Shown: positions 9,270-52,747 of the stretch, in pieces
Position numbering within the stretch: position 1 is the stretch's first letter
Layout of the letters: every line of letters begins with the position of its first letter
From: a virus
Reading direction: 5' to 3' (one strand)
DNA length: 64,000 bases
Virus record (IMG/VR): IMGVR_UViG_3300031772_000003
Span: 99,717-163,716 of that record
Position numbers and translations under genes: made by a program
Notes under the pieces: generated by a model
Database searches by the model: none
Told to the model about the DNA's origin: nothing
The model's input: the letters and a program-made list of their open reading frames with translations, nothing else

Positions 9270-9970
9270 GCCTTGCCCCTCATGTATTCTAGCGACCTCT
9301 GCCGAATCAGCTTATCACACGCCTTTTGCTTCGCCCTACCCGACGTTGACATGCTACCAGGTCGTGGGTGCCGATACACGTAGGTCACCACGGGTACATG
9401 CTTAGTCGCACAGCCCGTCTCCCCAAGTAGGACGGCTATCTGATAGTCTACCGCTGAGGAAATCGAGGTATCGAGACCCCGGCTTTTGCGGTAAAAATCC
9501 AGGGACCAGAACTGCTGACACCCCGCTCCCCACCACCCACAGTTACAAATCGCGCTCCATAGGGTAGTACCAGGAGGGAGGGGTTTGCTCCACCCGTGCC
9601 TATCGGTTCCCATAAACTTCCAGGCCGTCCATACATAACCGACAGACGTATCTTGAAAGGGGGGTACACCCACGGACAAGCTATTAGACATCAGGGTATC
9701 ATCACTGCCCAAGAACGTCACCACGTCGCCTGTGGCAGCGTCCAGGGCAGCTTTGAGGGCGGCGGCACAACCGCCGTGGGGGAGCTTGAGCAGGGTAACA
9801 GGCTGGCCCGCTATGAGGCTTTCCACAACGTCGGCAGTATCATCCGTCGAGCCGTCATCGGCGATGATCAACTCCCACTGCTTATGGGTCTGGGCGAACA
9901 CAGAGCGGATCGCCTCAGCTATATAGGGGGCAGTGTTGTAACATGGAACCAACACGCTTACCACTTTCAT
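9266..9970 (-). CDS. Family 2 glycosyltransferase, 234 aa
   Basis: A textbook GT2: the N-terminus V-S-V-L-V-P-C-Y-N-T-A-P-Y-I is followed by I-I-A-D-D-G-S-T-D-D-T near residue 40, then F-L-G-S-D-D as the DxD-like metal site. The start is fixed by an ATGA overlap with the stop of giant polyprotein A; the longer frame upstream overlaps that gene. It is the first of the coupled glycan genes, so their translation is tied to that of the polyprotein. Confidence 0.85.
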   Translation of the reverse strand: MKVVSVLVPCYNTAPYIAEAIRSVFAQTHKQWELIIADDGSTDDTADVVESLIAGQPVTLLKLPHGGCAAALKAALDAATGDVVTFLGSDDTLMSNSLSVGVPPFQDTSVGYVWTAWKFMGTDRHGWSKPLPPGTTLWSAICNCGWWGAGCQQFWSLDFYRKSRGLDTSISSAVDYQIAVLLGETGCATKHVPVVTYVYRHPRPGSMSTSGRAKQKACDKLIRQRSLEYMRGKA

Positions 9971-49800: not shown

Positions 49801-52747
49801 GGTTGGGGTAAACAGAGATAAACCTGGTCTCTCCTTCAATAGTCCCTCGCGTACCCAAGCTTTCATCCACTGTAACCCTGACGTCCCGTATTCGCTTCAT
49901 GTCCTCGTCACCAGCAGGCTGGTACACCTGGTAAGACGAGACCAGAGAGGACAATGTGGTCTCGGTCAAGATATTGCCTATCGTCTCTATGGCGAAAGAA
50001 CCAGACCCAAAGACAGCCGCACCATTCAACCAGTTGAAAATCTCATTGAACGCAATGGGCCAGTCAAGTGCCATCTCGGAGGCTTCCGCAAGCATGCGGT
50101 CGAGGCTACCCATAGATTCCCCTGCCCCGGCCACATGGTACTGCTGGGCAGGCGAGACATCCCCCCGCGCTCCTGGGGACAGTAGGCCCGTGAGATACGG
50201 CACTTGGCAGGCAACGAAAGACAGATTATGGGGATACCCTACGTCCCCCACAACCCGATTCACGTAGCCCTCCGGGGCCAGAACAGGATAAGTATCCTCG
50301 TCCTCCCGTCTCTGTTCCAACGCACCGGAGAGACGGCCCAACGTCTTCCTATCAACGCGGTACACATGGAAGTGGCCTCGATTCACTCGTATCCAGTCAT
50401 ACGCTCTCAGGATCGTGGAGATGTCGGCGAAGGAATCCTCCCCACCAACCTCCAACGTCTTAGGCTCATCCCCCCTACCATGCTTCTCCATGTAATCCAC
50501 GAATGCCCGCGTGTGGGCTAGACCACCCACGTAGACCCACTCTCCTATATCGGTGATCCACCAGCGTCCCCCTATGGTGAAGATTTCGGGCCGCTTCCGA
50601 ACCCTGTCCGCAGAGAACCAGTCATCCTCAAAGAGCACACTACCCAAACCACCAATGGACTCAGTAGCCAGCTTCCCCAAGGTCGCCCTGCCTCCCTGCA
50701 CGAAGTTGGCCGCCATGTCTCCACGCCGATGCGCGACGCTGAGCATCTGGTCCACAACCTGAAGCTGGTCCTCCGCGGTCTTGGCCCTCACGAGATCGAA
50801 GGAGAGGTCGAGCAGTGGTTCCAGTCCATAGTCACTCAGCCGCCACGTCCCATGAGGATCGGTGAAGAAGTTGGGCATCTGGTCCTCCCACTCCTCATCC
50901 GTGAACTCAATGCCCCGCTCCTCCAACTCAGGCCGCATGTCCAGCGAGGTATGGCCCATGAGCTCGGTACAGGCCCGAAGCCTCTGGGCGTTGTGGAGCA
51001 TCCGGTCCTTAATCTCCTGCATGCCCGCTTCATCCCGCACCACACCGGTCTTGGCGTAGTCCTGCCAAATCTTAATGAGGCGGGCAGCAGGAACAACGGC
51101 CCAGGAAACCCTACCCTTCCCACGCTTCCGCTTGAACTCAGCAACGACGGCCTCAAGCTCCTCGTCATAGATGTCCTCCAAGAAGTACGTAATCTCCTCG
51201 CTGCCCATCCCAGTAGTCCCACCACCAGGCACCTCATCCCAGTCCTCCTCGGCCTCCTGTATCACGCGGCCCAGACTGCCAATGAACTCCCCCCCAACCT
51301 GCATGATGTGGTCTATGTACTCCACGGCATCGTCGGGAGTGCCCTGGAAGATCAGTTCATGTGGGTCATTGATGTCCACCCGATGCCGCTTGCCGCCCAG
51401 GATAATGTCGCGCAGGGCATGTAGAGCTTCGCTGGCAGGGGCGTCCCCCACCTCGACGCTTAGTATGCCCTCAGCATCGAACAACCGGATCGCCCCACGC
51501 CTCAACGCCTCCTCCCGAAACTCCCATGTCCTCTGGTGCGTCCAGCTTAGTCCAAACCACCGCACCGTAGCCACGGTATGGCCCTCAAGCGTAGCTGAGA
51601 CAGTACCGTTTGGCCATACCCACGCGATCCCAATGGGGGCGGTGGACTCACCCAAGAGTGAGGTCATGGAAACCTCCTCCCATGGCACGTCAGGATTGCC
51701 TGGGCGGTCCAACATGTTCTTCCGCCAAACCCTGGACGGTCTAAGCACACCTCTATGAGCAACATTGGCGTAGCCGCTTCCCATGCTGGGATCGCCTACT
51801 ACCTGGTCGCCAGCCATTAGCTCCACCTTCTGCTCGTCCGTCATCTTCTGCATCAACTTCTTGACGGTGTAGATCGCGGCGTCAAAATCCCAGTCCAAGC
51901 TATCTGGGTCGAACTCCGCACCCGCCTGTGCCGCCATTACCTCAAGCCACTCAGGGGCTGTCCCATCCTGTAGGCGCTTCAGCACATCGTCTTCATCGGG
52001 CTCCACGTCCTTGAGGGCCTCACCAGGAATCTCGAAGACATACCCATAAGGGTCGCTCTTCAGGACACGCTCCTCACCCACGCCCGCTGCGATCTCAGCG
52101 TAACGCTCTGCCTCCCCCCTGAACTGAGTCAAGTAAACGAAGCCCTTGCGGGAGACATCCGCCCCTTTGTAATTGCCCGCCTTGTTGGGGTTGACGCCAT
52201 TTCGGATGATGTCCCTCGCTCTAACCCTCCCAGCAGTGCCGTGATACCAAGTACTAGCCTTCTGCCACTCAGCAGGGGGAGGCATCTCGGTGAGGAGACG
52301 ATCCAGGCTGCCAATGGATTCCCTCACCCCAATGCGGGCGCGGGCAGCGGAGGCCATGTCACCGGGCTGTCCCTGAAGATTGCGGTCAATCCACTCAACA
52401 GTCTGCTCGGGGGTAAACCGGACCCCGCACACAAAGGCCGAGCGCGCCCACTGCGGCCCATCCATGTACACCTCGTCATATTCTCTCATTTCTGCCACAA
52501 TGTCTCGCAGAGTCTCCAGAGCAGGCGAGGCGGGGGAATCTCCCACGCTAACTCCGAGCCACCGATCACCAGCGGTCAGACGAATGGCTCCCCGGTACAT
52601 TGCGTCGTAAATAACCGTCCGTGATTTCGGAGCACCTAGCCAGTCCGCCGCGACCTGACTATGACAACCCCCCTGACCCAATGAACCATCGGGCCAAATC
52701 CAAGTGCCATCGGGGTGGACATCAGCGAGTATGGGGGATGCAGCCAC
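40823..52747 (-). CDS. Giant modular polyprotein B, 3974 aa
   Basis: The start is the GTG at 52747 after AAGGAGG; a longer frame would overlap the 84-aa gene. About 22 modules in order (separate entries cover the groups): W-DG, ART, W-DG, helical domain, W-DG-like, two HExxH peptidase-like domains, W-DG-like, ART, nucleotidyltransferase, W-DG, two GH-DD-LW modules, ART, a third GH-DD-LW, W-DG-like, JAB/MPN, two ARTs, W-DG, a fourth GH-DD-LW, ART-like. Twelve linkers of type ESIG(S/G)LDR occur near 52289-52324, 51257-51292, 50629-50664, 50086-50121, 49400-49435, 48670-48693, 46208-46231, 45777-45800, 44459-44494, 42957-42980, 42417-42452, and at the very end (40826-40864), most with (L/I/V)-x-E. 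The final ~35 residues are strongly basic. Confidence 0.85.
41000..41480 (-). other. Polyprotein B: C-terminal ART-like module
   Basis: [11 protein letters not shown] opens the fold, followed by [10 protein letters not shown] and [11 protein letters not shown]...S/T...E spacing fits an ADP-ribosyltransferase but is divergent. Confidence 0.45.
42590..43925 (-). other. Polyprotein B: two ART-like modules
   Basis: The first (43925-43000) has [11 protein letters not shown] and [11 protein letters not shown]. The second (42940-42590) has [11 protein letters not shown] and [10 protein letters not shown]. Both have the H-x-T motif and strand order of ADP-ribosyltransferase/KptA-like folds. Confidence 0.55.
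44020..44455 (-). other. Polyprotein B: JAB/MPN metallopeptidase domain
   Basis: [17 protein letters not shown] near 44290-44240 is the complete JAMM zinc motif (HxH-x(7-10)-SxxD). Such domains remove ubiquitin-like or peptide tails. Confidence 0.8.
45440..45765 (-). other. Polyprotein B: ART-like module
   Basis: [12 protein letters not shown] then [11 protein letters not shown] and V-V-L-R-V-D-I-P, the H/Y(W)/E arrangement of KptA/ART-like folds. Confidence 0.55.
47030..47800 (-). other. Polyprotein B: nucleotidyltransferase domain
   Basis: [20 protein letters not shown] and later H-P-V-D-F-F-I-V give the G-S-x-D/A-D-x-D and third Asp of pol-beta-type minimal nucleotidyltransferases. A long coiled-coil tail follows. 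It might add nucleotides to proteins or RNA. Confidence 0.65.
47845..48215 (-). other. Polyprotein B: ART-like module
   Basis: [11 protein letters not shown] then [15 protein letters not shown], a clear match to phage ART/KptA-like domains. Confidence 0.6.
48700..50080 (-). other. Polyprotein B: two HExxH metallopeptidase-like modules
   Basis: H-E-I-V-H-A-I near 49730 and H-E-V-E-H-L-I near 49020 give HExxH. Both are followed by a P-x-E-(V/Q)-x-(S/A)-Y-A segment and end near F-(K/Q)-(G/K). They match the copy in polyprotein A. Confidence 0.6.
51680..52260 (-). other. Polyprotein B: first ART-like module
   Basis: [12 protein letters not shown] then [15 protein letters not shown] and a [13 protein letters not shown] strand, close to the polyprotein A ARTs. 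Confidence 0.6.

What the first reader, a model, noticed from the sequence alone, without database searches (positions are those of the whole stretch)
9967..52747. Two giant polyproteins built from about 40 small enzyme modules joined by a recurring linker
Two single ORFs (3090 and 3974 aa) chain ADP-ribosyltransferase-like, Nudix, 2H phosphoesterase, nucleotidyltransferase, JAB/MPN, HExxH and ParB-like domains. About 19 linkers of form ESIG(S/G)LDRxLxE divide them. I infer concatenated internal-head effectors that are packaged, cut in the prohead, and ejected with DNA, as the T4 internal proteins and Alt are, but delivered as one chain. Modules and linkers are seen directly; the packaging and cleavage are inference from T4 biology.
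Basis: partly seen in the sequence, partly recalled or inferred. Interest (0 to 1): 0.93.

Follow-up and report, generated by a model that had tools for sequence, protein, structure and literature searches.

The report
Phage head enzymes made as polyproteins
A T4-related environmental phage encodes two giant proteins, each a string of about 16-22 small enzyme modules whose joints look like the 'ship me into the phage head, then cut here' tag of phage T4, which suggests dozens of host-attacking proteins are made as one chain, packed in the head and cut apart there.

Summary
In detail: two single ORFs of 3090 aa (window 9967-19239) and 3974 aa (40823-52747), 347 and 444 kDa, which I divide into 38 modules. 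Eighteen linkers match a half-motif (ESIG / xTIGxL) against 0.6 expected; ten carry [LI]xE in exact register (p~1e-16). [LIV]xE[AS] sites number 38 against ~16 expected, 34 outside domain cores (p=2e-7); other P1 residues show no comparable skew. The same genome encodes a gp23 capsid protein (with LKE|A), a gp20 portal and a gp21-like prohead protease. T4 gp21 cuts after L/I-x-E.

Comparison shows what the linker is. In a close capsid relative the same peptide is both the N-terminus of separate genes (MARNEIRKAVDRLVGE|Q) and an internal linker (ESIEGAVDQILKE|K). A homologue of the ART module starts with a T4-type capsid-targeting sequence (CTS) exactly where our linker sits. The nucleotidyltransferase module is CTS-led in many phage contigs, often as a small polyprotein whose second module's CTS-led orthologue is a mass-spectrometry-proven virion protein.

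Best reading: CTS-linked polyproteins of internal head effectors, cut by the prohead protease. Packaging, cleavage and ejection remain inferred. A new variant of T4 internal proteins and of polyvalent proteins.

The parts
9967..19239 (-). Polyprotein A, 3090 aa (347 kDa), 16 modules
40823..52747 (-). Polyprotein B, 3974 aa (444 kDa), 22 modules, downstream of TerL and portal
18361..18399 (-). linker A281 [14 protein letters not shown]
16594..16641 (-). linker A867 ESIGSLAHLVESLME|A
15814..15861 (-). linker A1127 HTVGELDLLVE|S (weak)
15055..15090 (-). linker A1384 [13 protein letters not shown]
14581..14616 (-). linker A1542 RTIGALDAALNE|E
13867..13902 (-). linker A1780 RTVGSLDMALSE|G
13492..13527 (-). 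linker A1905 DDVGQLDRVVCE
52286..52321 (-). linker B143 [13 protein letters not shown]
51254..51289 (-). linker B487 [13 protein letters not shown]
50627..50662 (-). linker B696 [13 protein letters not shown]
50084..50119 (-). linker B877 [13 protein letters not shown]
49400..49435 (-). linker B1105 [13 protein letters not shown]
48656..48691 (-). linker B1353 [12 protein letters not shown] (degenerate; preceded by IGE|S)
46199..46234 (-). linker B2172 [12 protein letters not shown] (followed by VIGE|G)
45764..45799 (-). linker B2317 [13 protein letters not shown]
44456..44491 (-). linker B2753 [13 protein letters not shown]
42941..42976 (-). linker B3258 [12 protein letters not shown] (no LxE)
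42416..42451 (-). linker B3433 [13 protein letters not shown]
40829..40864 (-). C-terminal linker copy B3962 [12 protein letters not shown]
17854..18327 (-). ADP-ribosyltransferase-like module A-1
   Evidence: fold match of family model
17260..17733 (-). ADP-ribosyltransferase-like module A-2
15988..16563 (-). ADP-ribosyltransferase-like module A-3
51719..52252 (-). ADP-ribosyltransferase-like module B-1; homologue in L167 is CTS-led
47891..48220 (-). ART-like module B (weak Pfam)
45464..45733 (-). ART/KptA-like module B (weak Pfam)
43670..43912 (-). ART/KptA-like module B (weak Pfam)
42638..42925 (-). ART-like module B (motif only)
   Evidence: sequence
15169..15807 (-). zincin-like HExxH module A
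49466..50068 (-). zincin-like HExxH module B-1
48743..49384 (-). zincin-like HExxH module B-2
14113..14568 (-). 2H phosphoesterase-like module
11713..12033 (-). Nudix hydrolase module
10636..11082 (-). ParB-like (DGNHR) module, motif only
   Evidence: sequence; no Pfam match
47060..47863 (-). nucleotidyltransferase (pol-beta/MNT) module, AVTE|SILDP start; stand-alone or CTS-led in relatives
44084..44335 (-). JAB/MPN-like ([15 protein letters not shown]) module, motif only
   Evidence: sequence; no Pfam match
12544..12909 (-). GTWIWPDG module (unknown domain) A-1
12121..12474 (-). GTWIWPDG module A-2
52379..52708 (-). GTWIWPDG module B-1 (modelled, pLDDT 86, no PDB fold match)
51305..51625 (-). 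GTWIWPDG module B-2
46688..47011 (-). GTWIWPDG module B-3
42017..42370 (-). GTWIWPDG module B-4
46268..46624 (-). FSYGxGxDDxLWW module B-1 (unknown domain)
45833..46177 (-). FSYGxGxDDxLWW module B-2
45152..45418 (-). FSYGxGxDDxLWW module B-3
41558..41938 (-). FSYGxGxDDxLWW module B-4
40877..40960 (-). basic C-terminal tail of B ([25 protein letters not shown]), shared with the tail of the stand-alone nucleotidyltransferase of relatives
33959..35041 (-). separate gene whose N-terminus resembles the linker (VKTDLAWAVDAVLNE|K)
33461..33955 (-). separate gene with CTS-like N-terminus (MPTILEQVVADVLSE|T)
55413..57563 (-). gp20-type portal with intein; C-term SLME|AVVE
57563..59794 (-). large terminase (named by sequence and position) with intein
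   Evidence: only the intein gave a family match

Best explanation
A and B are polyproteins of internal head effectors. SHOWN: two chains of 38 small modules; recurring linkers; a T4-type capsid, portal and prohead protease in the same genome; [LIV]xE[AS] sites concentrated at joints; linkers that match, in the spacing of hydrophobic residues and Glu, the capsid-targeting sequence (CTS) that leads homologous or neighbouring single-module proteins in related phages. INFERRED: each linker is an internal copy of a CTS. Its hydrophobic face (positions -6, -3, -2 from the Glu) docks the chain on the scaffold core during prohead assembly. The gp21-like protease then cuts after L/I/V-x-E, freeing separate enzymes inside the head. 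They are ejected with the DNA to modify host targets or protect the phage by ADP-ribosylation, nucleotidyl transfer, Nudix and 2H phosphoesterase chemistry and proteolysis. The chains probably arose by in-frame fusion of tandem CTS-led genes, the downstream CTS becoming the linker, and by module duplication.
For: Linker statistics. [LIV]xE[AS] 18 vs 7.3 (A) and 20 vs 8.7 (B), 34/38 outside cores, p 2e-7; D, Q, K, R, G or T in place of Glu show no comparable skew. Head genes: protease phrog_207 5.5e-19, Gp23 3.7e-43, Gp20 5.5e-32; MCP HIRKLKE|ATSS just before the Gp23 core. gp21 motif L/I-X-E; 10-aa CTS with residues 4 and 7 for targeting, 8 and 10 for processing (PMC9026906); T4 ipII/ipIII N-termini fetched, same spacing. 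Relative G015: one peptide as N-terminus of separate genes and as internal linker, 7 hits vs 0.2; G004 5 vs 0.4; own 9 vs 0.4. Own separate gene MRDLIEEAVDHLLSE|A. ART homologue led by MKTFKTFKTFISE|M in L167, next protein joined in frame through MKTFKIFVE|S. Nucleotidyltransferase relatives in at least 490 stretches, CTS-led in nearly all loci read; 21 marine small polyproteins keep sites at the N-terminus (21/21) and at joints (16/21, 11/19, 7/8). Cytidylyltransferase T4-GC190 (MKKFSAFLNE|A in S-SM1) found in purified virions (PMC3037559).
Against: No protein data for this phage. Eight of 18 linkers lack [LI]xE in exact register and some (B3258, B3962) have no plausible site. Neither chain starts with a CTS. 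Modules are mostly acidic, whereas T4 internal proteins are basic. Most MCP relatives examined lack giant polyproteins, though several are fragments, and the exact linker ESIGxLDRxLxE occurs in no other IMG/VR contig as a convincing coding match. Core boundaries for the site test were set by hand from family alignments after the sites were known. The contig is metagenomic.
Confidence: 0.78

Rival explanations
1. Polyvalent proteins packaged whole, or cut by their own zincin-like HExxH modules, not by the prohead protease; linkers are capsid-docking motifs only.
For: Three HExxH modules; polyvalent proteins are proposed to be self-processed by such peptidases, and N4 vRNAP is packaged uncut (PMC5512222).
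Against: Joints carry the L/I-x-E signature of the T4-type protease the genome encodes, with a Glu-specific excess at joints; the same sites sit at N-termini of single-module homologues that have no HExxH module.
Confidence: 0.12
2. Large multidomain proteins made in the infected cell (not packaged), whose linkers are flexible spacers between enzymes.
For: No virion data; B is next to the portal but A lies among glycosyltransferase and methyltransferase genes; acidic modules.
Against: Spacers need not keep a phi-x-x-phi-L-x-E pattern at saturated synonymous divergence, nor match N-terminal peptides of separate genes; a family related through a shared small polyprotein is a proven virion protein.
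Confidence: 0.07
3. Linkers reflect repeated duplication of one ancestral module plus its flank, with no present function.
For: Module families are repeated (ART 4 or more, GTWIW 6, HExxH 3, FSYG 4-5).
Against: Linkers precede non-homologous modules (ART, peptidase, 2H, JAB-like), and modules of one family can lack the ESIG form; codons are randomised while residues are kept.
Confidence: 0.03

Closest known systems
T4 internal head proteins IPI-III and Alt (CTS plus gp21 processing)
   Same: CTS-type peptide with the same hydrophobic spacing, L/I-x-E cleavage motif, gp20/gp21/gp23-type head, enzymes including ART
   Different: T4 proteins are separate genes with one N-terminal CTS; here 16-22 modules per chain share internal CTS-like linkers; modules are acidic
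Polyvalent proteins (Iyer et al. 2017, PMC5512222)
   Same: Large phage proteins mixing ART, zincin peptidase, ParB, NTase and 2H-type domains, predicted to be injected
   Different: Those have 2-15 domains and are proposed to be cut by embedded or C-terminal peptidases; no recurring capsid-targeting/cleavage linker was found in the passages read
Nucleotidyltransferase-cytidylyltransferase chains of marine T4-like phages (L099, L107 and relatives) and cyanophage T4-GC190
   Same: Homologous NTase module; CTS at the N-terminus; [LIVM]xE[AS] sites and an internal CTS copy (KLTFKDFMKE|E) at joints; T4-GC190 is in virions
   Different: 700-1137 aa, fewer modules; different linker sequence; not annotated as polyproteins in the records seen
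SPN3US/phiKZ ejection proteins
   Same: A prohead protease cuts many head proteins thought to enter the cell (PMC10052503, PMC5694885)
   Different: Cuts remove propeptides rather than separate fused enzymes; motif AxE in SPN3US

Membership tests
T4-type internal head proteins | T4-type prohead protease, scaffold and gp23 capsid in the genome | tested here: met
   phrog_207 5.5e-19, PF07068 3.7e-43, PF07230 5.5e-32; protease fused to a scaffold-like C-terminus
T4-type internal head proteins | CTS with hydrophobics at -6, -3, -2 and Glu at 0 | tested here: met
   Ten of 18 linkers carry [LI]xE in exact register; same spacing as T4 ipII/ipIII. Not at the N-termini of the chains
T4-type internal head proteins | Cleavage after L/I-x-E in the prohead | not testable with these tools
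   Sites present and concentrated at joints; cutting needs biochemistry
T4-type internal head proteins | Present in virions and ejected with DNA | not testable with these tools
   Only indirect: CTS-led T4-GC190 detected in S-SM1 virions
T4-type internal head proteins | Basic, DNA-associated proteins | tested here: not met
   Most modules pI 4.1-6.6; only the B tail is strongly basic
Polyvalent proteins | Several unrelated enzymatic domains in one phage polypeptide | tested here: met
   Nudix, 2H, NTase, ART, HExxH in the same chains
Polyvalent proteins | Matches to curated polyvalent-protein domain models | tested here: inconclusive
   Only ART-PolyVal at E 0.09
Polyvalent proteins | 2-15 domains (published range) | tested here: not met
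   16 and 22 modules by my segmentation

The most novel reading that the evidence does not exclude
A general phage strategy not described in the papers I could search: capsid-targeted polyproteins. Tandem CTS-led effector genes fuse in frame, the CTS becomes a linker that both addresses the chain to the head and marks where it is cut, and the prohead protease releases an equimolar enzyme cocktail inside the head. It ranges from a few modules in marine T4-like phages to 38 modules in this phage.
Probability: 0.6. Interest if true: 0.88.

Novelty: new variant of a known kind. Interest (0 to 1): 0.82.

Why it matters
If true, DNA phages use the polyprotein trick best known from RNA viruses, here to load a fixed-ratio set of host-takeover enzymes into one capsid. 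It gives a simple rule (phi-x-x-phi-[LIV]-x-E before a domain) for finding injected effectors in environmental phages, explains why unrelated small enzymes sit in one giant ORF, and gives defined joints at which cleavage, stoichiometry and ejection can be tested.

Tried and rejected
Whole-chain tblastn against 50,697 phage records found only Nudix, 2H and one ART relative for A and nothing for B. Viral-contig scans with the A ART pair, the GTWIW alignment (not searchable) and a B GTW/FSYG segment found nothing; genome contigs with the ART alignment found nothing. Degenerate DNA search for ESIGxLDRxLxE gave two chance hits. Giant ORFs in MCP relatives are of other kinds, though G015 holds 714-1099 aa chains with its own linker. 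I dropped 'LxE is enriched in the chains': it is not overall, only at joints. A loose phi-x-x-phi-[LI]-x-E count is significant in B but not in A. PDB profile search for the HExxH family found nothing meaningful; fold search of the GTWIW module found no match. Frameshift or assembly explanations for the long ORFs: not supported, both are open throughout with good codon scores. Tunturi_5 gp205 shares an ART region but shows no such linkers by eye.
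Full report
WHAT IS THERE. The window is the last 64 kb of a 163,716-base virus record. Two ORFs on the minus strand, A (3090 aa) and B (3974 aa), are open throughout and score as coding. The start of B is set by an overlapping gene in another frame. B follows the terminase and a gp20-type portal, both with inteins. A lies downstream, near glycosyltransferase and methyltransferase genes.

LINKERS. Defined only by the N-terminal half (ESIG-type or xTIGx[LIV]), 18 linkers occur versus 0.56 in shuffles. 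This definition does not use the second half, so the second half is a fair test: [LI]xE stands at exactly +9 in 10 of 18 (background 0.9%, p~1e-16). Identical linker residues are spelled with codons as different as random draws, so residues are held by selection. Over the whole chains LxE is not enriched; it is placed at joints. The wider form [LIV]xE[AS] occurs 38 times (about 16 expected), 34 times outside domain cores; replacing Glu by D, Q, K, R, G or T gives 18, 7, 3, 23, 19 and 8 sites without a comparable skew. Core limits were chosen by hand from family alignments, a weakness.

MODULES. Segmentation gives 16 + 22 = 38 modules. Families repeat: ART-like (four clear copies plus weaker ones), GTWIWPDG (six), HExxH (three), FSYGxGxDD (four or five). 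The ART model matches ART-superfamily structures (E 3e-3, prob 0.99). The GTWIW module is modelled with pLDDT 86 and has no PDB match. Nudix, 2H and nucleotidyltransferase are supported by profile or homologue matches; JAB and ParB only by motifs.

HEAD GENES. The record encodes a Gp23 capsid protein whose core is preceded by HIRKLKE|A, a gp20 portal ending SLME|AVVE, and a head-maturation protease fused to a scaffold-like tail with LVE|A, IKE|A and LME|A. In T4, gp21 cuts after L/I-X-E, cuts core proteins into several fragments, and internal proteins are addressed by a 10-residue CTS whose residues 4 and 7 target and 8 and 10 process (PMC9026906). Aligned on the Glu, T4 ipII/ipIII (MKTYQEFIAE), the CTS of relatives and the linkers share hydrophobics at -6, -3 and -2.

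RELATIVES. (i) The MCP finds 21 loci. In G015, 53% identical in MCP, one peptide type occurs at the N-termini of separate genes (MAKNEIQKAVDRLVGE, MARNEIENAVDSLVNE, MARNEIRKAVDRLVGE) and inside 966- and 1099-aa proteins (ESIEGAVDQILKE, DSIESAVDKVLGE, DAIERAVDKVLAE). G004 has DPIEQAIDMVLAE-type peptides in both places. The own genome has MRDLIEEAVDHLLSE|A at the start of a 78-aa protein in the head region. (ii) The B nucleotidyltransferase is stand-alone in G004, G005 and G007, and their basic C-terminal tail resembles the end of B, as if modules had been inserted between an old gene and its tail. (iii) The same module is found in at least 490 stretches; in marine T4-like phages it starts MRFKDFLKE|SIIDIP and is often fused to a cytidylyltransferase and others, with sites kept at the N-terminus (21/21) and joints (16/21, 11/19, 7/8), one joint being a plain CTS copy (KLTFKDFMKE|E). 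Neighbouring genes are CTS-led too. (iv) The ART homologue in L167 begins MKTFKTFKTFISE|M where B has [13 protein letters not shown], and is joined in frame to a methyltransferase-like protein through MKTFKIFVE|S; a stop codon interrupts that ART reading frame near locus base 7256. (v) The CTS-led cytidylyltransferase T4-GC190 was detected by mass spectrometry in S-SM1 virions (PMC3037559). This links one module family of such chains to the particle by experiment.

MECHANISM. Synthesis as one chain; docking of CTS-like linkers on the scaffold core; capsid closure; cutting at [LIV]xE; DNA packaging; ejection with DNA. Long ORFs and the presence of signals are shown; docking, cutting and ejection are inferred from T4. 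Some linkers have two candidate sites ([VIL]xE|S before and [LI]xE|A after), so the peptide between may be excised; this is speculative.

NOVELTY. It works like T4 internal proteins and Alt, and its domain mixture is that of polyvalent proteins. It differs from both in the repeated internal addressing-plus-cutting linker and in number of modules. Searches of the open literature held here found no description of prohead-protease-cut effector polyproteins; most subscription papers are not covered. I file it as a new variant of a known kind.

LIMITS. One metagenomic genome, no protein data, weak domain models for about half of the modules, acidic modules unlike T4's basic internal proteins, and several linkers without a clean site.

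Noticed in passing
25514-26389 (-): Caspase-like peptidase (PF00656, E 8e-10) encoded by the phage between A and B; a possible effector.
   Followed up: partly
55413-57563, 57563-59947; genome 17672-19633, 23684-26080 (outside window): Similar intein splicing domains in the portal, the terminase, an AAA ATPase (below Pfam cut-off) and a radical-SAM protein (there with an HNH endonuclease); the baseplate gene at genome 38032 may hold another.
   Followed up: partly
genome 13044-14336 (L002, outside window): Adenylosuccinate-synthetase family gene (PF00709, 5.7e-59); could be PurZ of a 2-aminoadenine (Z) genome or plain PurA; not tested.
   Followed up: partly
61138-62967 (-): 609-aa protein whose first part looks by eye like a TnpB-type protein and whose last part looks like a sigma-factor-like helix set; no Pfam match.
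   Followed up: no
29072-30154 (-); also genome 1-924 and 8380-9201: Several copies of a protein with tandem GFAP-QxGGxLxLxSLxA repeats and a shared MCQFRSGEAVRVDDSEVKVLFSE start; function unknown.
   Followed up: no
39151-40821 (-): Long GPTG collagen-like repeat protein directly downstream of polyprotein B, probably a fibre.
   Followed up: no
genome 60232-61023 (L005, outside window): Small protein with three segments each preceded by a DPIEE(A/M) peptide, the same peptide type as in relative G004: perhaps a miniature polyprotein in the same genome.
   Followed up: partly
genome 35434-37053 and 37072-38022 (outside window): Baseplate-region proteins with cysteine-rich tails (CQANCQGYCQLGCEG...), one also holding the only other ESIG-type peptide (ESIGTLQKIVESLE).
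   Followed up: no
L107, L110, L132: PAP2-type phosphatase domain fused in front of the nucleotidyltransferase through a CTS-like joint (RKSFSE|SIIDIP).
   Followed up: partly
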